Positions 2,115-19,856 of a DNA stretch of 64,000 bases are shown here, one piece after another; within the stretch, counting starts at the first letter, position 1; each line of letters begins with the position of its first letter. A program made the translations under genes and the position numbers. Source of the DNA: Prochlorococcus sp. HOT208_60m_813O14 (GTDB lineage: Bacteria; Cyanobacteriota; Cyanobacteriia; PCC-6307; Cyanobiaceae); contig MWOO01000021.1 in the NCBI GenBank assembly GCA_002025945.1, positions 1 through 64,000 of the forward strand. The letters are read 5' to 3'. The notes beneath the pieces were generated by a model. That model searched no databases. It was not told the origin of the DNA and saw nothing but the letters and a program-made list of their open reading frames with translations.

Positions 2115-3860
2115 ATGGCTAAACAGTTAAGTTTTTCTAATGAATCAAGAGAAGCGCTAGAAAAAGGTGTAAATTTCGTAGCTAATGCGGTTAAGGTTAC
2201 TATTGGGCCAAAAGCAAAAAACGTTGTAATAGAAAAGAAATTTGGTTCGCCGGATATAGTAAGAGATGGATCTACAGTTGCTAAAGAGATTGAAATTGAG
2301 AACCCTATTTCTAATTTGGGTGCGAAATTAATAGAACAAGTTGCGTCCAAGACAAAAGAGAGTGCAGGTGATGGAACAACAACAGCAACCATTTTGACTC
2401 AGAAGATGGTTCAGGAAGGATTAAAAAATATTGCTTCTGGTGCCAACCCTATGGAGTTAAAAAAAGGTATGGAGGCAGGCCTAGCTTTTGTCTTAGAAAA
2501 ATTAAGTTCCAAAAGTATTTCATTAAGTGGATCTGATATACAAAAAGTTGCAACAGTTAGTGCTGGAGGTGATGAAGAAATTGGAGCTATAATTTCGAAA
2601 GCAATGGAAATTGTTACTTCAGATGGTGTAATAACTGTTGAAGAATCTCAATCATTAGAAACAGAATTAGATATAACTGAAGGAATGTCTTTTGATAGAG
2701 GTTATAGTTCTCCATATTTCGTAACAGACCAAGAAAGACAAGTTTGTGAACTTGAAAACCCTAAAATATTAATAACTGATCAAAAAATCTCAACTTTAGT
2801 TGATCTAGTTCCAATACTTGAAGAAATTCAAAAGGCAGGCTCATCTTTTGTAATTCTTGCTGAAGATATTGAAGGAGAGGCTTTAACCACTCTGGTTTTG
2901 AATAAGAATAGTGGGGTTTTAAATGTAGCTTCCGTGAGAGCTCCGTTATTTGGTGAGAGAAGAAAAGCTGCCCTTGAAGATATTGCAATTCTTACAGGGG
3001 CTAAGTTGATTAGCGAAGATAAATCGATGACACTTGATAAAGTATCAATTAATGATTTAGGCAAAGCAAAAAAAATAACTATCACAAAGGATAAAACTAC
3101 AATTGTTGCCTTCGAAGACACTAAAGATTTAGTCAAAGCGCGAGTAGAGAAATTAAAGAGGGAAGTTAATATAACTGAATCTGAGTATGATCAGGATAAA
3201 ATCAATGAAAGGATAGCCAAACTAGCTGGAGGAGTAGCTCTTATCAAAGTAGGAGCTGCAACAGAAACAGAGATGAAGTATAAAAAGTTGAGAATCGAAG
3301 ATTCCCTTAATGCTACGAAAGCTGCTATTGAAGAGGGTGTTGTTTCTGGAGGAGGACAAACTTTAATTGAAATATCAGATGCACTTTTAAATTTAAGTGA
3401 AACATCTTCAGATGATTTAAGTACAGGGATAAATATAATTAAAGAAGCCCTTTTAGAACCTACCAAACAAATAGCAAAAAATGCTGGTTTTAATGGAGAT
3501 GTAGTTGTCGCTGAAATTAAAAGACTTAACAAAGGCTTTAATGCTAATTCAGGAAAATATGAGGATTTAAAAGATTCAGGCATATTAGATCCAACCAAAG
3601 TAATAAGATTGGCTCTTCAAGATTCAGTATCTATTGCAGCTATGCTCCTCACAACAGAAGTTGCGATGGCCGACATTCCGGAGCCCGAAGCCGCGGCCCC
3701 TGGAGGACCAGGTGGAGATCCAATGGGAGGAATGGGTGGTATGGGAATGCCAGGAATGGGTGGCATGGGAATGCCAGGAATGGGTGGCATGGGAATGCCA
3801 GGAATGGGTGGCATGGGAATGCCAGGAATGGGTGGCATGGGAATGCCGGGTATGATGTAA
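2115..3860 (+). CDS. groL: 60-kDa chaperonin GroEL, copy without adjacent groES
   Basis: An ATP-driven double-ring chaperonin subunit. The product is 581 residues, longer than the usual ~545 because of its tail. The ATP-site elements are visible: [10 protein letters not shown] (28-37), VRDGSTVA (49-56) and AGDGTTTAT (84-92). The C-terminus is an extended Gly-Met tail with five perfect copies of the octapeptide GGMGMPGM. No groES gene precedes it. Picocyanobacteria usually carry a second groESL operon elsewhere, so this is likely the stand-alone paralogue. Apart from the tail, nothing suggests loss of ATPase function. A hairpin with a T-run follows the stop. Confidence 0.95.
3735..3850 (+). 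repeat. 24-bp tandem repeats encoding GGMGMPGM in the groL tail
   Basis: Five head-to-tail units of 24 bases (beginning GGTGGCATGGGAATGCCAGG; the first has GGTGGTATG and the last changes CCAGGA to CCGGGT) encode GGMGMPGM. The units are nearly identical at synonymous positions, which points to recent slippage-type duplication rather than old selection on protein alone. GGM tails line the base of the GroEL folding cavity. Confidence 0.9.
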
Positions 3861-12676: not shown

Positions 12677-13819
12677 ATGATTAATAATTCACAAAAAAGA
12701 TCATTTGGTAGAGGGGCAAAAGTGAGCTTATTCACTTTAGGGACAATGCGAGCAACTGAAAGTCTCGAAAAAATGTATAGCATAATAAAAAATGCATATT
12801 ATGTAGGAATTAACCACATAGAAACAGCATCCTCTTATGGTGAGGCTGAATCACTTATTGGAAATTCAATAAAAAAATTAGCAATAGAAGAGAATATAAA
12901 AGAAAATAATTGGGTGATTACTTCCAAAGTTTTACCAAAGGGTAATTTTGACTTTTTAAAAAATAATTTTAAAAAGTCTCTTAAAAATTTAAATCGCGAT
13001 AAAATTAATAATCTTGCAATTCACGGACTCAACTTAAAAGAACATCTAGATTGGGTTCTTGCTGGAGAGGGTAAGAAATTCATATCTTGGATCCTTGAGA
13101 AGAAACTAGTTGATCAAGTCGGTTTTAGTTCTCATGGAAGTTATTCACTAATTAAAGATGCAATTAACTGTGAAGTTTTTACTTTTTGTAGTCTTCATTT
13201 ACATTATTTAGATCAATCTAAGATTGCTTTAGCAGAGGAAGCTATAAAAAAAGGTATGGGAGTTTTAGCGATATCACCTGCAGATAAAGGCGGTAGATTG
13301 TATTCTCCAAGTGATATTTTGATAGAGGCCTCTAAGCCTTTTCATCCATTAGAATTAGCGTATCGATTTCTGCTGGCAAAAGGCATTACAACTTTATCCT
13401 TGGGGGCGACAAACAAAAAAGATTTTGAATTCGCGCATAAACTTAGAAACTCATTCGAGAAGCTTACAACACTTGAAAAAAGCGCCCTTAATAAAATTGA
13501 GGAAGTTTCTAATGAAAGATTAAACTCAACCAAATGTGAACAATGTAGATCTTGTCTTCCATGTCCAAATGAAGTGCCTATTCCAGAAATACTGCGTTTA
13601 AGAAATATATCTGTTGGTTATGGCCAATTAGAATTTTCAAAAGAAAGATACAATTTAATAGGAAAAGCTGGCCACTGGTGGGAGGAAAAAAATTCCTCAT
13701 TTTGTCAAGAATGTAATGAATGTGTTCCTAAATGTCCTAGTAAATTAGATATACCAAATTTATTAAAGGAAACTCATAACTTATTAATTGAAAATCCTAC
13801 AAAAAGATTATGGGGATAA
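12677..13819 (+). CDS. aldo/keto reductase with C-terminal double 4Fe-4S domain
   Basis: A predicted oxidoreductase of the COG1453 type, 380 residues. The N-terminal two-thirds is an AKR barrel: NHIETASSYGEAE contains the catalytic Tyr, ITSKV the Lys and LAIHGLN the His, but the usual catalytic Asp (DTA) is Glu. The C-terminus carries two ferredoxin-like clusters, CEQCRSCLPCP and CQECNECVPKCP; the first has one residue fewer than the standard CxxCxxCxxxCP. The combination implies an electron-transfer reductase rather than a sugar reductase; the substrate is unknown. It overlaps the convergent lipoprotein gene by 12 bases. Confidence 0.85.
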   Translation: MINNSQKRSFGRGAKVSLFTLGTMRATESLEKMYSIIKNAYYVGINHIETASSYGEAESLIGNSIKKLAIEENIKENNWVITSKVLPKGNFDFLKNNFKKSLKNLNRDKINNLAIHGLNLKEHLDWVLAGEGKKFISWILEKKLVDQVGFSSHGSYSLIKDAINCEVFTFCSLHLHYLDQSKIALAEEAIKKGMGVLAISPADKGGRLYSPSDILIEASKPFHPLELAYRFLLAKGITTLSLGATNKKDFEFAHKLRNSFEKLTTLEKSALNKIEEVSNERLNSTKCEQCRSCLPCPNEVPIPEILRLRNISVGYGQLEFSKERYNLIGKAGHWWEEKNSSFCQECNECVPKCPSKLDIPNLLKETHNLLIENPTKRLWG

Positions 13820-14809
13820 GGACTCATTCCAGATATTTTTAAGATTAATTTTTTGTTCATTTGTTAAGTTAGGGAAAGACCAACTATTTTCCCAACATTT
13901 CTCAGAAGGTCCTGTGATGGGTAGTAGCATTTCAGTTTTATATTTACTTTGCAAATAATCACTATTGAATGGAAGATACCAACCCTGGCTTACTAATTTA
14001 TCTACTATTGATTTATTTTCTAGTGATTTAATCCATTTAATTAATATTGCATTATTTAGATTTGATCGACTAAGTATAAAATGCCACATCAAAGGTACGC
14101 CTTGGCTTGGGAAAACTAAAGAAAGCCTTGGATCTATTTTTAAATATTTTGAACAAAGACTATAAGGAAATATTGCGACAATAGCATCAGAATTAATCAA
14201 CCAGTTGAGCATATTTTTATCATCAAATAACATTGCTTGGCTTTTGAGTTTTTTTAAAGAATTAGATGAATTAATTTTTTGAGCAATTGACAATATTATT
14301 CTGGGACTTTGAGGAAAAATGATTTTTCCAGTTAATTTTTTGGAAAGAAGAAAATCCCAAGATGTTCTTGCTGAATTTATTAATTCTTTATTATTTTTAA
14401 TGATAACTGTATAGGGTACTACGCCAATAGGAAATAATTTACTCCTATGATTTTTATTAAAGTTTCCTAAAAAATCTATCGATCTCTTATCCAAATTTTC
14501 GAACAGTGTATTTTCATTTATTTTTTCAAATTCTGAAAAATCTATACTAGAAATCCATCCATCATTTATTAAAGTAAAATCAGAATTTAAAATTGTGTTC
14601 CTATTTTTTTGTAGCCGAATATTTTCAAAATTAATTTTTTCTTGCTTCCAATCTTTTGGAATCGTATCTTTAAAGGATTCTGGATAAAAAGAATTTTGTA
14701 ATGCAATTTTTACTTTATTAGGTAGATTACTGCAAGAGTTTAAGAAAAATAAAATCGAAAGCTTACCACAATTTAAAAATTCTCTTCTGGTTGGAAATTT
14801 TGAAAACAT
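13808..14809 (-). CDS. putative solute-binding-like lipoprotein with twin-arginine signal
   Basis: The 333-residue protein starts with a twin-Arg motif TRREFL (7-12) followed by a hydrophobic run and a lipobox-like FLNSC (Cys26). This suggests Tat export and lipid anchoring. The rest resembles family-1 extracellular solute-binding proteins (polyamine/iron type): DGWISSIDFSEF, a VPYTVIIKNNKEL hinge-like strand and LPITGPSEKCWENSW near the end. No transporter permease or ATPase of that class is adjacent. The gene precedes the CobT-like gene's end by a single base on the same strand, so it is likely co-transcribed downstream of it. The ligand is unknown. Confidence 0.6.
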   Translation of the reverse strand: MFSKFPTRREFLNCGKLSILFFLNSCSNLPNKVKIALQNSFYPESFKDTIPKDWKQEKINFENIRLQKNRNTILNSDFTLINDGWISSIDFSEFEKINENTLFENLDKRSIDFLGNFNKNHRSKLFPIGVVPYTVIIKNNKELINSARTSWDFLLSKKLTGKIIFPQSPRIILSIAQKINSSNSLKKLKSQAMLFDDKNMLNWLINSDAIVAIFPYSLCSKYLKIDPRLSLVFPSQGVPLMWHFILSRSNLNNAILIKWIKSLENKSIVDKLVSQGWYLPFNSDYLQSKYKTEMLLPITGPSEKCWENSWSFPNLTNEQKINLKNIWNESLSP

Positions 14810-15967
14810 TCAGCAATCCTTCTCTAAAGAAATTTGACCTAGGCCCTTCATCATTTCCAGATTTTGTTGACACAATGAAACTATTTCTTCATTTTTAAAT
14901 CCATCTAAGAAAGCAAGCAATGATATTCCACCAGCACCTACACCCTCTTTTACATGACCTAATTCATAATCCTTCAATTCTTTGTATTTTGAAGATTTGA
15001 AATTTAAAGGACTGGCTAAACCTATTAATTTGACATTATATTTTTCATTAATTAGATTTACTAAATCATTTAGAGAATTATCTTTCACAAGCCACCCAGT
15101 TGTCGCAATAAAAACATCTTCAATAAATTCATCTTTATTTTTTTCATCTAAAAATTCTAATACAAGCAAAATGATCGCTAACATCTGACTTCCTCCAGAC
15201 AAAATTACAGGTTGTTTTGCTAACCTAGCACCAATTAGAAGACCCATTGAGAAAGCTTGGAAGGGATCACCTACCGCCGCGACAACATCAAAAGAGTCGA
15301 AATCAGCCTTGAAATTTGCATTGATAAGTCCTCTTTCAACTACTTGTCTTCTTAATTCTCTTGGAGCGTTAAATAAACTACTCCCTACTAAATTAGATAC
15401 CTGCAAACCAAAAGCTTCCATTACTGCCTGAGCAGTTGTGGTACCCCCCGGTACAGATTCAGAAATTAAAACTGGTTGTTTTAAAGATTTTCCTATCGCA
15501 AGACCTTTTTTATAGAGTTTTAAAACTCTTCCTTTGGTCATCGATTTACCAGTAGTAAGACAATTTGATGGGCCCAAATTTCTATCTTCTACAACCAAAT
15601 GATTAAAATAAGGCTTTGCTCCTATTCCCAGAGGAACAATAACTGGACAAATATTTATAAGCTTTGAACAAACATGACTGATCAGGGCAGGAGTTACTCC
15701 TGCATTGAGAAGAGGCAATTTATATTTATGATCTTTTGAAGCACCTTCAAGCAAAAATTCGGCATCTGCGAGCGCAGTTATTCTCCTTGATTTTGCATTA
15801 ATACCTGCTGCGGAAATTCCTGGAATTTGAGATGTATTAGTGCCAGCAATTATAAGAAATATTTTTAAATTTTTAATATTCTTTTTCAGTATTTCTATCT
15901 TATTAAGTTGTCTTTTTTTATTGGATTCATTACCAAAAAAATTTATCCCTAATTCTGTACTGTACAT
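14810..15967 (-). CDS. CobT-like nicotinate-nucleotide phosphoribosyltransferase (UPF0284)
   Basis: A 385-residue member of the cyanobacterial/archaeal CobT-like group (UPF0284, TIGR00303), distinct from enterobacterial CobT. Seen: FLIIAGTNTSQIPGIS, LLNAGVTPALISHV, the SVPGGTTTAQAVMEA loop and ILSGGSQMLAIILL, typical glycine-rich phosphoribosyl-transfer segments. The proposed role is activating the lower base of the cobalamin nucleotide loop. Prochlorococcus is thought to make pseudocobalamin, so the base may be adenine; that is inference. It is flanked on the same strand by a DUF2232 membrane protein (upstream) and the lipoprotein. Confidence 0.8.
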   Translation of the reverse strand: MYSTELGINFFGNESNKKRQLNKIEILKKNIKNLKIFLIIAGTNTSQIPGISAAGINAKSRRITALADAEFLLEGASKDHKYKLPLLNAGVTPALISHVCSKLINICPVIVPLGIGAKPYFNHLVVEDRNLGPSNCLTTGKSMTKGRVLKLYKKGLAIGKSLKQPVLISESVPGGTTTAQAVMEAFGLQVSNLVGSSLFNAPRELRRQVVERGLINANFKADFDSFDVVAAVGDPFQAFSMGLLIGARLAKQPVILSGGSQMLAIILLVLEFLDEKNKDEFIEDVFIATTGWLVKDNSLNDLVNLINEKYNVKLIGLASPLNFKSSKYKELKDYELGHVKEGVGAGGISLLAFLDGFKNEEIVSLCQQNLEMMKGLGQISLEKDC

Positions 15968-15979
15968 TCTTACTTTTTT

Positions 15980-16618
15980 TTAATTATTAAAATCAACTAA
16001 GCTATTTAATAATCTTGGAGGATCTGGGATGATTAATTTAAATTTAGGAAACAGAGAATAGGCAACTACATGTACAGTCAAAACATAAACTATTTCTTGA
16101 AAAATAATTAATAAAATTGCACCTATTTGTATACTCAAAATTGAGGGATATAAAGGTAAATTAAATAATCCAATGAACTTTTCTATTAGGCCATAACTCG
16201 CTCTAGTAATTAACACCCAAAGATTATCTCCAACCAATGTAGATAATGCTATTACTCTTATTAAGAAGCCAAGGGTTCCAATAACAACTCCCCCAGTTAA
16301 ACTAAGTTTCCAACTCTTTTCTTTAAACCAACACCAACCTAACCAAAAAGCCAAGATCCCATAAGGAAATAAAAATAAAGTTCCTCTAACAGGACCCATA
16401 ATTATGAATAAAAGTAGAAATTGTATTAAAAGTCCTTCCAATGCAATTTTAGTTCCTCTTCTCAAGTGCAACAAGATGATTGGGAGAGGTAAAATCAACC
16501 TTAATAAAGCTCCCCCAATTGGCAGATAATATAATGCAACCCATAATAAAGACGAAAGAGATGCTAAATAAGAGGTCTCGACAATATTTAGTGCTTCAGT
16601 TTTTGTTGTTATTTTCAT
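15980..16618 (-). CDS. DUF2232-like integral membrane protein
   Basis: The 212-residue protein is almost entirely hydrophobic, with about six helices, and resembles DUF2232/S-component-like membrane proteins found next to the CobT-like gene in cyanobacteria. The N-terminus (ALNIVETSYLASLSSLLWVALYY) and the loop PLPIILLHLRRGTKIALEGLL fit that family. Such proteins are weakly similar to substrate-capture subunits of ECF vitamin transporters, so a vitamin-related role beside CobT is possible but unproven. It ends 12 bases before the CobT-like start. Confidence 0.7.
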   Translation of the reverse strand: MKITTKTEALNIVETSYLASLSSLLWVALYYLPIGGALLRLILPLPIILLHLRRGTKIALEGLLIQFLLLFIIMGPVRGTLFLFPYGILAFWLGWCWFKEKSWKLSLTGGVVIGTLGFLIRVIALSTLVGDNLWVLITRASYGLIEKFIGLFNLPLYPSILSIQIGAILLIIFQEIVYVLTVHVVAYSLFPKFKLIIPDPPRLLNSLVDFNN

Positions 16619-16638: not shown

Positions 16639-17241
16639 TTAATTTTTATACATACTTTTACTTTTTGAATCTAAGATACGTTCAATCTTTTCTATTTCAA
16701 AATTTACCTCAGAATTACTCAATATGGAACTCAACTCTTCAGTGGGATCTTTTGGATCTACATCTTTTAATATGAATATTATTTTATAAGATTGAAGCTC
16801 ATTTTTTCTTTTTTTTGAAAGATTCTTAATTTTTTTATTTTTTTTATCATCAAATTTTTTATTTTCTTTTTCTAAATTTATATCGTTTTTATTTTCAAGA
16901 ACATTTTTTGGCTTTTCTACTTTTTTAATTTTTTTATTTTTTTTATCATCAAATTTTTTATTTTCTTTTTCTAAATTTATATCGTTTTTATTTTCAAGAA
17001 CATTTTTTGGCTTTTCTACTTTTTTAATTTTTTTATTTTTTTTATCATCAAATTTTTTATTTTCTTTTTCTGAATTTATATCGTTTTTATTTAATAAGTT
17101 ATTTTGTAAATCTTCATTTTTGCTAATTTTTTCTAAATCATTAAAACTACTTTCAAGAAAATTTCCAATGCTCCCTCCAGAACATGATTGTAATAAAATT
17201 AAAAAAATTAATAAAAAAAATTCTTTTTTTTTAAAAATCAT
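16639..17241 (-). CDS. Lys/Asn-rich repeat lipoprotein, 200 aa, unknown function
   Basis: The protein has an N-terminal basic-hydrophobic signal (KKKEFFLLIFLILLQSC) with lipobox Cys20. A disordered-looking lysine/asparagine-rich middle is built from 33-residue repeats (two full copies at 51-83 and 84-116, and a partial third at 117-139). The C-terminus is a more ordered domain (SYKIIFILKDVDPKDPTEELSSIL...FEIEKIERI, about 152-190) that looks like an alpha/beta fold. The middle uses almost only A/T-ending codons. It lies between topA and the DUF2232 gene with gaps of 8 and 20 bases, so probably in the topA transcript. I know no function. Confidence 0.6.
   Translation of the reverse strand: MIFKKKEFFLLIFLILLQSCSGGSIGNFLESSFNDLEKISKNEDLQNNLLNKNDINSEKENKKFDDKKNKKIKKVEKPKNVLENKNDINLEKENKKFDDKKNKKIKKVEKPKNVLENKNDINLEKENKKFDDKKNKKIKNLSKKRKNELQSYKIIFILKDVDPKDPTEELSSILSNSEVNFEIEKIERILDSKSKSMYKN
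16825..17091 (-). repeat. 99-bp tandem repeats inside the lipoprotein gene
   Basis: Units of exactly 99 bases: the landmark TATCGTTTTTATT recurs at 16881, 16980 and 17079. Two complete copies and a 69-base partial copy encode NKNDINxEKENKKFDD...NVLE. The copies differ mainly at one residue (Ser versus Leu), so the expansion is recent and in frame. Confidence 0.92.
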
Positions 17242-17249
17242 ATTTTTTT

Positions 17250-19856
17250 CTAACTTTTCTTTTTCCTTGTAGTTTTTTTATTACTAATCTTTGTTTTTTT
17301 TAAACTTGCACCTTTTTTATCTTTTAGTTTTTCTTCTAAAAGAGATACCGCATCATCTATGGTAATTTTTTCTATATCAGTATCTTTGGCAATCGGAACA
17401 TTAGTTTTGCCACATTTCAAATAGACGCCATATCTTCCATTTAATATTTGAATTTTTTCATTAAATTCTTTCTGTTTTCCAAAGTCTTTAAGTACCTCTT
17501 GACCACCTCTACCCATTTTTGGCATAGCAAGAATTTCTAATGCTCGTTCTATATCAACTGTAAAAACATCATCCTCTTTCTTTAAGGATCTGTTTTCAGA
17601 TTCATTTTCATTTTTAATCCATTTGATGTACGGGCCAAATCTTCCTCTATCAGCCTCAACAACTCCTCCTTCAGGATGAACTCCTAACAATCTAGGCAAA
17701 CTTAAAAGTACAAGAGCCTCATCTAAAGTTAGATCATCAGTTTTCAACTCTTTGGGTAATGAAGCTCTTCTTGGTTTGGCTTTATCTTGATCATTATTTC
17801 CCAATTGTACGTAAGGTCCATAAGGGCCAAATCTTAAAAAGACTTTTTCCCCAGTTTTTGGATCAGTTCCAAGATCCGATGGGCCACTTAAAATTTGATC
17901 AACTTTTTTTATATCTAAATCTCCAGGAGTAATATCCATTGGCAGATTACCTTTAGCCTGAATTTCATTACCAGATTCATCAATTTTTGTACCCTCTAGC
18001 CAAGGTCCGTTAGAGCCTATTCTCACTACGCAAGGAAGGTCTTCGAAATCAACTTGTCTATAAGCTTTACCATCAATATCACCCTCTGTTTTCTGAACCT
18101 TTACCTCCAAACCATTTTTACCTTTATAGAAAGTTTCGAGATATGGTAGCCACTCAAGATTGCCTGAAGATATTTCATCCAATGAGGATTCCATTTTTGC
18201 AGTAAAAGTAGTATCAACTAAATCAGGAAAATGTTCTTCTAATAGAGCAGTAACAGCAAAAGCTGTAAATGTTGGAGACAAAGTATTGGATGATATATTC
18301 GCATAACCTCTATCAACTATGGTCCCAATAATGCTGGCATAGGTAGAAGGTCTTCCAATCCCTTCTTTTTCAAGAACTTTAACTAATGCAGCCTCTGTAT
18401 ATCTTGCAGGGGGTTTAGTTTCATGAAAAGTAGATTCCTTATTAGTAACTTCAAGACATGTTCCAGTTGTTAAGTTTGGGAGAATAATTTCTTGTTGTTC
18501 AAGGGATGAACTTGGGTCATCACTTCCCTCGACATATGCTCTGAAGAATCCTGCGAAATCAATACTTTTCCCACTCGATTTAAATAATCCATCCCCTACG
18601 CTAATTTCAGCATTAATCATTGTTAACCTAGCTTCCGCCATTTGACTAGCTACAGTTCTTTTCCAAATTAAATCGTAAAGTGATAAGTCTCTACCAGTTA
18701 GATTAGTCTCCTTTGGTGTTTTAAATATCTCACCTGCCGGCCTAATAGCTTCGTGTGCTTCTTGAGCATTTCTTGCAGTTGAATTAAATTGTCTTGGTGA
18801 GTTTGATAAATATTCTTTTCCATACATAGAACTTACACATTCTCTAGCAGCTCTTGTGGCTTGTTCGGAGAGATTAACTGAATCAGTTCTCATATATGTT
18901 ATGAAACCTCTCTCATATAGCCCTTGTGCACATCTCATAGTTTCTCTTGCAGACAAACGAAGCTTTCTATTTGCTTCTTGTTGTAATGTGCTAGTTGTAA
19001 ATGGAGGAACTGGCTTACGAGTGGTTGGTTTTTTTTCGATTTTTGAGACTAACCAATCCTCTGAGGAAAAAGTCTTCAATAAATCATTTACTTGCTCTTC
19101 TCCAATTATTAAAGATTTGTTTCCTTCTTTTAATTTACCGGTTTGTTCGTCGAAATCTGAGCCGTTAGAAATTCTTTGACCGTTTAAACTGAATAATTTA
19201 GTTTCGAAAGTAATATTATCTTTTACTAGGGAAGCTTTAATCCCCCAGTAACTAGCTTTTTTAAAGGATCTTCTTTCTCTCTCTCTCCTAACAAGAAGTC
19301 TTACAGAAACTGATTGAACACGACCAGCAGATAGTCGGGGGGCAACCTTCTTCCAAAGTAAAGGAGATAATTCATATCCAAAAAGCCTGTCCAAGATTCT
19401 TCTTGTTTCTTGAGCCTGAACAAGTTCCATATCAATTTCTCTTGTTTGGTCTAAAGCTTTATTAATTGCCTTCTTCGTAATTTCATGAAAAACCATTCTC
19501 TTAGTTGGTATTTTAGGTTTAAGTATTTGCAGGAGATGCCAGCTAATACTCTCTCCCTCTCTATCTTCATCAGTTGCCAGTAATAGCTGGGTGGCGCCTT
19601 TCAATGCATCTTTCAACTCTTTGACAACCTTTTTCTTATCTTTTGGAACTATATAAAGTGGTTCAAAATCCTCTGTTGTATTAACTCCTATCCTTGACCA
19701 TTTTTCCTTTTTAACCGCAGCAGGTATTTCAGCTGCTCCTTTTGGAAGATCTCTTACGTGTCCCATTGAAGCAAGAACTTCATAATTAGAGGGCAAAAAC
19801 TTTCTTATAGTTTTTGCTTTGGTGGGACTTTCAACAATAACAAGTGTGTGATCCAA
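17250..19856 (-). CDS. topA: DNA topoisomerase I
   Basis: A type IA topoisomerase relaxing negative supercoils, 868 residues. The Toprim start TLVIVESPTKAKTI, acidic TDEDREGE, and active-site Tyr321 in GFITYMRTDS are present, as is GRPSTYASII. Instead of zinc fingers the C-terminus has several GRFGPYIKWI-type repeats (FGPYGPYVQLG, GRFGPYIKWI, GRYGVYLKCG) and a Lys-rich tail, the usual cyanobacterial form. The ATG start is directly followed by the Toprim strand. It is divergent from ndhB. Confidence 0.97.
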   Translation of the reverse strand: MDHTLVIVESPTKAKTIRKFLPSNYEVLASMGHVRDLPKGAAEIPAAVKKEKWSRIGVNTTEDFEPLYIVPKDKKKVVKELKDALKGATQLLLATDEDREGESISWHLLQILKPKIPTKRMVFHEITKKAINKALDQTREIDMELVQAQETRRILDRLFGYELSPLLWKKVAPRLSAGRVQSVSVRLLVRRERERRSFKKASYWGIKASLVKDNITFETKLFSLNGQRISNGSDFDEQTGKLKEGNKSLIIGEEQVNDLLKTFSSEDWLVSKIEKKPTTRKPVPPFTTSTLQQEANRKLRLSARETMRCAQGLYERGFITYMRTDSVNLSEQATRAARECVSSMYGKEYLSNSPRQFNSTARNAQEAHEAIRPAGEIFKTPKETNLTGRDLSLYDLIWKRTVASQMAEARLTMINAEISVGDGLFKSSGKSIDFAGFFRAYVEGSDDPSSSLEQQEIILPNLTTGTCLEVTNKESTFHETKPPARYTEAALVKVLEKEGIGRPSTYASIIGTIVDRGYANISSNTLSPTFTAFAVTALLEEHFPDLVDTTFTAKMESSLDEISSGNLEWLPYLETFYKGKNGLEVKVQKTEGDIDGKAYRQVDFEDLPCVVRIGSNGPWLEGTKIDESGNEIQAKGNLPMDITPGDLDIKKVDQILSGPSDLGTDPKTGEKVFLRFGPYGPYVQLGNNDQDKAKPRRASLPKELKTDDLTLDEALVLLSLPRLLGVHPEGGVVEADRGRFGPYIKWIKNENESENRSLKKEDDVFTVDIERALEILAMPKMGRGGQEVLKDFGKQKEFNEKIQILNGRYGVYLKCGKTNVPIAKDTDIEKITIDDAVSLLEEKLKDKKGASLKKTKISNKKTTRKKKS

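What the first reader, a model, noticed from the sequence alone, without database searches (positions are those of the whole stretch)
16825..17091. Recent 99-bp in-frame repeats in a Lys/Asn-rich lipoprotein
Period exactly 99 bases over two and two-thirds copies, differing mainly by one codon. The 33-residue unit (NKNDIN..NVLE) is highly charged and may form coiled or disordered linker of variable length between a lipid anchor (Cys20) and a small ordered C-terminal domain. This looks like a length-variable surface or periplasmic spacer, rare in streamlined genomes.
Basis: seen in the sequence. Interest (0 to 1): 0.5.

Follow-up and report, generated by a model that had tools for sequence, protein, structure and literature searches.

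The report
Length-variable repeat linker in Prochlorococcus lipoprotein
A small, probably lipid-anchored protein of the abundant ocean phototroph Prochlorococcus has a floppy, repeat-built linker whose length changes between near-identical strains while its two ends stay the same; relatives in other cyanobacteria carry a cell-wall-binding domain instead of its short ending.

Summary
The repeat is real: 99-bp period, 2.7 copies, the two whole copies differing by one base, inside a 200-aa lipoprotein gene between topA and a DUF2232 gene. In 99 unique relatives the linker runs from 52 to 184 aa; the nearest relative by flanking DNA differs in linker length in 88 of 99 cases, even at 0.6% divergence. 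The 33-aa copy classes (40 rows) show no phylogenetic signal; all lengths together show some. Spacers differ 0.9% within arrays, 11.7% between. Length also varies (79-118 aa) in 19 genomes of six contigs or fewer, so it is not only an assembly artefact. The linker is weakly constrained, both ends strongly. The protein belongs to an unnamed picocyanobacterial family whose N-terminus matches SLH (wall-binding) lipoproteins of other cyanobacteria (30 of 30 examined; two beside topA). Most likely a membrane-anchored spacer with an in-frame minisatellite, the SLH part having been replaced. Location and the short ending's function are unknown. "Rare in streamlined genomes" does not hold. New variant of a known kind (compare E. 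coli tolA).

The parts
16639..17241 (-). Lipoprotein gene, 200 aa, no Pfam, NCBIfam or PHROG family at cut-off
   Evidence: family found in 212 of 266 genus genomes, 85 of 87 near-complete ones
17143..17241 (-). Signal peptide, lipobox LQSC (Cys20) and post-Cys motif C-S-G-G-x-I-G-x-x-L-x-x-S-F (residues 1-33), shared with SLH lipoproteins
   Evidence: alignments A1, A2; hhalign 95.9%, E 5.6e-9 over 29 columns
16789..17142 (-). Lys/Asn/Glu-rich linker (residues 34-151), mostly predicted disordered
   Evidence: 118 aa; pLDDT below 50 at residues 54-76 and 78-138; residues 24-49 modelled as helix
16826..17092 (-). In-frame 99-bp tandem array, 2.7 copies
16660..16788 (-). C-terminal conserved segment (residues 152-194)
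   Evidence: no convincing PDB match by sequence and none by Foldseek
17250..19856 (-). topA, upstream neighbour, 8-bp gap
15980..16618 (-). DUF2232 membrane protein, downstream neighbour, 20-bp gap
   Evidence: in 49 of 49 loci where both neighbours were held, a member of this family lies between them, one with a broken frame

Best explanation
A lipid-anchored envelope (or lumenal) protein made of a conserved membrane-proximal segment, a flexible charged spacer and a small conserved C-terminal segment that probably makes the functional contact. SHOWN by comparison: in window-type Prochlorococcus the spacer is an in-frame minisatellite that gains and loses units faster than flanking genes diverge, and spacers within an array are near-identical, so arrays are rebuilt from local copies. 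Both ends are conserved while the linker is weakly constrained. SHOWN at profile level: the N-terminus resembles that of cyanobacterial SLH lipoproteins. INFERRED: in the picocyanobacterial family the wall-binding SLH part was replaced by the short segment. INFERRED: units change by recombination or slippage between copies, as reported for E. coli tolA. INFERRED: the spacer only needs a minimum reach, so length drifts nearly neutrally above about 50 residues.
For: Array and frame. Length 52-184 aa; nearest neighbour differs in 88 of 99; 110 of 119 pairs under 3% flank distance differ. Ladder classes: 22 changes against a shuffle mean of 21.4, 156 of 200 shuffles no higher. Spacer divergence 0.9% within, 11.7% between, zero in 17 of 22 arrays; core 6.0% against 10.6%, 0 of 1000 permutations as low. 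Arrays in 82 of 99 linkers, all periods multiples of 3; codon-shuffled maximum 18. Length varies in 19 genomes of six contigs or fewer. dN/dS in six equal-length groups (54 of 99 sequences): linker 0.28-0.90, C-segment 0.04-0.15, N-part 0.11-0.35. SLH relatives: 30 of 30 examined (of 40) carry Pfam SLH above cut-off; two follow topA directly. The SLH-lipoprotein profile in 121 family genomes gives 52 matches, those listed all within its first 153 of 387 positions; in the 12 genomes listed by both the place is the short protein. Analogies: PMC3477136, PMC12826056.
Against: No function or localisation data. The Lol sorting system is reported restricted to Gracilicutes (PMC10628300, passages), so outer-membrane placement cannot be assumed; thylakoid-lumen lipoproteins exist in cyanobacteria (recall). 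The SLH link rests on 29 N-terminal columns, partly generic signal peptide, with no unrelated lipoprotein family run as a control; 28 of 30 SLH lipoproteins examined had no topA in the fetched stretch. All lengths together keep phylogenetic signal: 65 changes against 75.4, 0 of 200 shuffles as low. The four-to-five-copy arrays come from fragmented assemblies. Linker dN/dS of the 151-aa group is only 0.28. Core units are strictly nearest to their own array in only 28 of 156 cases, with 45 ties. 17 of 99 linkers have no array at the threshold.
Confidence: 0.6

Rival explanations
1. Contingency locus: spacer length is itself under fluctuating selection (envelope stress, phage or grazer exposure), and copy number tunes a phenotype as in tolA.
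For: Ladder copy classes change without phylogenetic signal at very small flank distances; tolA precedent with copy-number-dependent stress tolerance (PMC3477136; abstract, introduction and discussion read).
Against: Neutral drift of a spacer predicts the same pattern; no phenotype known; linker dN/dS near neutral in the commonest class (0.90).
Confidence: 0.2
2. Assembly artefact: copy numbers are errors of short-read or amplified single-cell assemblies.
For: The window genome is 248 contigs at 76% completeness. In 8 of 35 window-type loci (L002-L034, L067, L075) the contig ends inside the gene, against about 5% by my own estimate (binomial 1.5e-4), so assemblers do fail here.
Against: 19 genomes of six contigs or fewer vary from 79 to 118 aa with different arrays; arrays have genome-specific unit versions. 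Breaks suggest that arrays are real and perhaps undercounted.
Confidence: 0.08
3. The linker is not a passive spacer but a polycation that binds an anionic partner (peptidoglycan, LPS, thylakoid lipid), its repeats adding binding sites.
For: Lys 30%, net charge median +14 over 99 linkers; one linker group (151 aa) shows dN/dS 0.28.
Against: In Synechococcus and Cyanobium loci the same linker is often Pro/Ala-rich; 0 of 24 non-window-type linkers holds an array scoring 30 or more. So charge and repeats are not conserved in the family.
Confidence: 0.12

Closest known systems
E. coli tolA intragenic tandem repeat (PMC3477136)
   Same: In-frame, length-variable Lys-rich repeat in an envelope-spanning protein; copy number 8-16 among 234 natural isolates
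   Different: 15/18-bp units in a helical domain of an inner-membrane protein; here mostly 99-bp units in a predicted disordered linker of a lipoprotein; no homology claimed
Pal disordered N-terminal linker (PMC12826056)
   Same: Lipid anchor, disordered linker, C-terminal domain; linker described as a molecular spacer
   Different: Pal has a peptidoglycan-binding C-terminal domain; no Pfam domain is found here; no tandem repeat is mentioned in the abstract and passages that I saw
Cyanobacterial SLH-domain lipoproteins (unnamed; L196-L205, L292-L311)
   Same: Lipobox plus G-x-x-L-x-x-S-F-like motif, low-complexity linker after it; next to topA in L196 and L292
   Different: C-terminal SLH domains in place of the 40-residue segment; I did not scan them for arrays
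OmpM-type SLH tethers (PMC10628300)
   Same: Membrane-anchored protein with a linker reaching the wall, in diderm Terrabacteria
   Different: Beta-barrel anchor and SLH domain; no SLH at Pfam cut-off in 13 of 13 window-genus genomes searched

Membership tests
Intragenic VNTR / minisatellite | Head-to-tail near-identical units, in frame | tested here: met
Intragenic VNTR / minisatellite | Copy number differs between close strains | tested here: met
   in low-contig genomes
Intragenic VNTR / minisatellite | Copy number varies within a clonal population | not testable with these tools
   needs long-read or PCR population data
Bacterial lipoprotein | Signal peptide with lipobox and invariant Cys | tested here: met
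   Cys20 invariant in 23 of 23 (A1) and 36 of 36 (A2); lipidation itself untested
SLH-domain lipoproteins of cyanobacteria | Shared N-terminal motif | tested here: met
   hhalign E 5.6e-9 over 29 columns; searches in both directions; no unrelated-lipoprotein control was run
SLH-domain lipoproteins of cyanobacteria | SLH domain | tested here: not met
   no Pfam hit; the A3 profile matches the window protein only at its N-terminal part
Pal / OmpA-like wall-binding lipoproteins | OmpA-like C-terminal domain | tested here: not met
   no Pfam or NCBIfam domain at cut-off
Outer-membrane to peptidoglycan tether | Outer-membrane location and wall binding | not testable with these tools
   no localisation or binding data

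The most novel reading that the evidence does not exclude
Picocyanobacteria rebuilt an SLH wall-anchored lipoprotein into a new envelope connector that no longer depends on the SLH ligand: the SLH part was replaced by a 40-residue module. In streamlined Prochlorococcus, where SLH was not found and the pyruvyl-transferase family is mostly missing, the connector's reach became a fast-evolving contingency trait set by a minisatellite.
Probability: 0.17. Interest if true: 0.65.

Novelty: new variant of a known kind. Interest (0 to 1): 0.42.

Why it matters
It is a natural series (about 0.7 to 4.7 units on nearly identical backgrounds) for asking whether linker length in an envelope lipoprotein matters at all. 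It points to an uncharacterised near-core family of Prochlorococcus and to a likely SLH-to-short-segment replacement, in a lineage where SLH was not found in the genomes searched. It also warns that fragmented single-cell assemblies break, and may miscount, at this locus.

Tried and rejected
Family labels: Pfam, NCBIfam and PHROGs give nothing at cut-off for the lipoprotein. PDB sequence searches with A2 and A4 give nothing convincing, best E 0.086 and 0.033. AlphaFold2 of the whole protein is poor (pLDDT 57); the C-segment alone gives pLDDT 78, one helix, no strand called, and Foldseek against the PDB finds nothing, so I claim no fold.

Homology of the C-segment with SLH was considered and rejected: hhalign aligns only the N-terminus. 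Composition alone as cause of the repeat was judged unlikely: five loci titled Prochlorococcus (L048, L049, L054, L055, L056) have Lys/Asn-rich linkers without arrays, among 24 non-window-type linkers with scores of at most 17. A first regex for units found none and was replaced. Rows dropped: 12 of 132 window-type loci failed the motif patterns or had a broken or truncated frame; the other 120 gave 99 unique. Of 26 matching genomes of six contigs or fewer, I used 21, and 19 passed the patterns. Paper searches (listings only; one search showed 15 of 4,587) listed no paper that I recognised as describing this gene or its repeats; that is not proof of absence in print.

Full report
OBSERVATION. 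The array is at 16826-17092, period 99, 2.7 copies, 99% match, no indels. On the minus strand the first two whole copies differ by one base (Ser/Leu) and the third is identical to copy 2 for 68 bases before it runs into the C-terminal part. It lies in a 200-aa ORF, 16639-17241 minus, with lipobox LQSC (Cys20). The genome has 248 contigs and is 76% complete; nearly all of the closest topA records are titled Prochlorococcus.

NEIGHBOURHOOD. topA ends 8 bp upstream; a DUF2232 membrane protein starts 20 bp downstream, then a CobT-type phosphoribosyltransferase (TIGR00303 above cut-off) and a protein only weakly like a solute-binding protein, all on one strand. In 49 of 49 loci where both topA and DUF2232 were held, a member of this family lies between them, in one (L029) with a broken frame. 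L206 shows ORFs in the same longer order (the further ORFs compared by eye).

FAMILY. The architecture recurs: lipobox, post-Cys motif (G-x-x-L-x-x-S-F), variable linker, conserved ending (typically YRITIKL..ADPSAPAE.VT.ALR.AGV.FEVE.IER in other picocyanobacteria, YKIIFILKDVDPKDPTEELSSILSNSEVNFEIEKIER here). A profile finds it in 212 of 266 genomes of the genus and 85 of 87 near-complete ones. No library names it at cut-off.

LENGTH VARIATION. Of 132 window-type loci, 12 were set aside (pattern or frame) and the other 120 gave 99 unique sequences. Linkers run from 52 to 184 aa; 40 of 99 are 52, 85, 118, 151 or 184 aa (steps of 33). Tandem arrays (score 30 or more) occur in 82 of 99, with periods 45, 63, 72, 81, 87, 90, 93, 99, 102, 147 and 186, all multiples of 3; 53 have period 99; codon-shuffled linkers do not exceed 18. 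None of 24 linkers from non-window-type loci reaches 30. By flanking DNA the nearest relative differs in linker length in 88 of 99; of 119 pairs closer than 3%, 110 differ; L008 (4.7 copies) and L128 (1.7) have flanks 0.6% apart. On a flank tree the 40 ladder rows need 22 changes, as many as shuffled labels (mean 21.4; 156 of 200 no higher), whereas all lengths together keep signal (65 against 75.4; 0 of 200 as low).

TURNOVER. In 22 arrays with at least two 39-bp spacers, spacers differ by 0.9% within and 11.7% between arrays and are identical in 17 of 22; of 59 spacers, 39 are strictly nearest to one of their own array and 18 tie. The 60-bp core is less clear: 6.0% within, 10.6% between (58 arrays), 0 of 1000 permutations as low, but only 28 of 156 cores strictly nearest to their own array, 45 ties; between arrays with flanks under 5% apart, core divergence (4.2-4.8%) is no larger than the within-array mean. 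So arrays are rebuilt from local copies, best seen in the spacers. Whether this is RecA-dependent, as reported for tolA contractions (PMC3477136), is inferred.

ARTEFACT CHECK. Assembly is a real concern: in 8 of 35 window-type loci the contig ends inside this gene, against roughly 5% by my estimate (binomial 1.5e-4). Of 26 matching genomes of six contigs or fewer I used 21; 19 passed the patterns and vary from 79 to 118 aa with different arrays, including single-contig ones; the two that failed, L123 and L130, had 124 and 85 aa. Variation is real; the four-to-five-copy counts need long reads.

SELECTION. In six equal-length groups (54 of 99 sequences) dN/dS is 0.28-0.90 for the linker, 0.04-0.15 for the C-segment and 0.11-0.35 for the N-part (simple pairwise counts, not corrected for relatedness or repeat alignment). 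The other two frames hold on average 10 and 19 stops per linker; none of 99 is open. Three loci (L029, L133, L162) have the N and C parts in different frames.

STRUCTURE. AlphaFold2 of the whole protein is poor (pLDDT 57); residues 54-76 and 78-138 of the linker are below 50 and residues 24-49 a helix. The C-segment alone gives pLDDT 78 with one helix and no PDB match. The linker is best read as disordered, on weak evidence.

RELATIVES WITH SLH. The A2 profile matches 76 of 291 class genomes: 36 of the family and 40 others, those mainly at the N-terminus. I examined 30 of the 40: ORFs of 294-479 aa, all with Pfam SLH above cut-off; one (L293) is cut by its contig end and the start of one (L304) is unclear. 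In two of the 30 (L196, L292, one genus, possibly Synechococcus elongatus by recall) the gene follows topA directly, as here; in 28 topA was not found in the fetched stretch. hhalign: 95.9%, E 5.6e-9, 29 N-terminal columns only, partly signal peptide; I ran no unrelated lipoprotein family as a control. The SLH-lipoprotein profile matches 52 of 121 family genomes, the listed matches all within the first 153 of 387 positions; in the 12 genomes listed by both the place is that of the short protein; I did not check the rest one by one. I read this as one protein whose SLH part was replaced on the family's stem; capture of one N-terminus by two different proteins is not excluded.

SLH BACKGROUND. 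SLH was not found in 13 of 13 window-genus genomes and was found in 7 of 7 other cyanobacteria; in a family sample it is in 68 of 121 genomes, none of them among the 5 of the window genus, the listed matches mostly in ORFs of about 450-680 aa. The pyruvyl-transferase family PF04230 is in 137 of 145 class genomes; the eight without it include the window genome and six other family members, though one of 5 window-genus genomes (G089) has it. Family members such as G319 and G393 have SLH elsewhere and yet the short lipoprotein, so the change in the lipoprotein appears older than the loss of SLH in the window genus (inference).

HOW COMMON. In 1.6 Mb of a single-contig relative, 145 arrays score 50 or more and 16 score 150 or more, all 16 in open frames; this locus ranks fourth. 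In-frame arrays are thus not rare here; this one combines a long unit with near-perfect identity.

MECHANISM AND VERDICT. Best reading: lipid anchor and membrane-proximal motif, freely length-changing spacer, small contact module. The spacer idea follows Pal, where linker length acts as a molecular spacer (PMC12826056; abstract and passages), and tolA, where copy number changes stress tolerance (PMC3477136; abstract, introduction, discussion). Membrane placement is open because Lol is reported only in Gracilicutes (PMC10628300, passages). Neutral drift of a tolerant spacer is the default; an adaptive contingency locus is possible but untested.

Noticed in passing
window 3728-3854: 24-bp x 5.3 Gly/Met-rich array; a similar in-frame array is in G022 at 441723-441845, probably the GroEL tail by recall.
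   Followed up: no
G022 stretches L212-L291: Other strong in-frame arrays: HDHSS x 9.5 (475313), ELKPEEPEESEVKEETVE x 4.4 (937155), KQEEQKQELQ x 4.9 (11829), RPGSPNRPGMPNRPG 108 bp x 2.3 (1441301), a 375-bp x 5.1 array in a 1305-aa frame (56107). Linker minisatellites may be common in this genus.
   Followed up: partly
window genus genomes (G000 and relatives): SLH domains not found in 13 of 13 genomes and PF04230 pyruvyl transferase not found in 4 of 5 sampled: apparent loss of SLH-based wall anchoring.
   Followed up: partly
L029, L133, L162: Lipoprotein N and C parts in different frames: pseudogene or sequencing error.
   Followed up: no
window 13808-15967: CobT-type enzyme followed by a protein weakly like a solute-binding protein, with a twin-arginine-like start by eye; ORFs of similar look follow in the same order in L206.
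   Followed up: no
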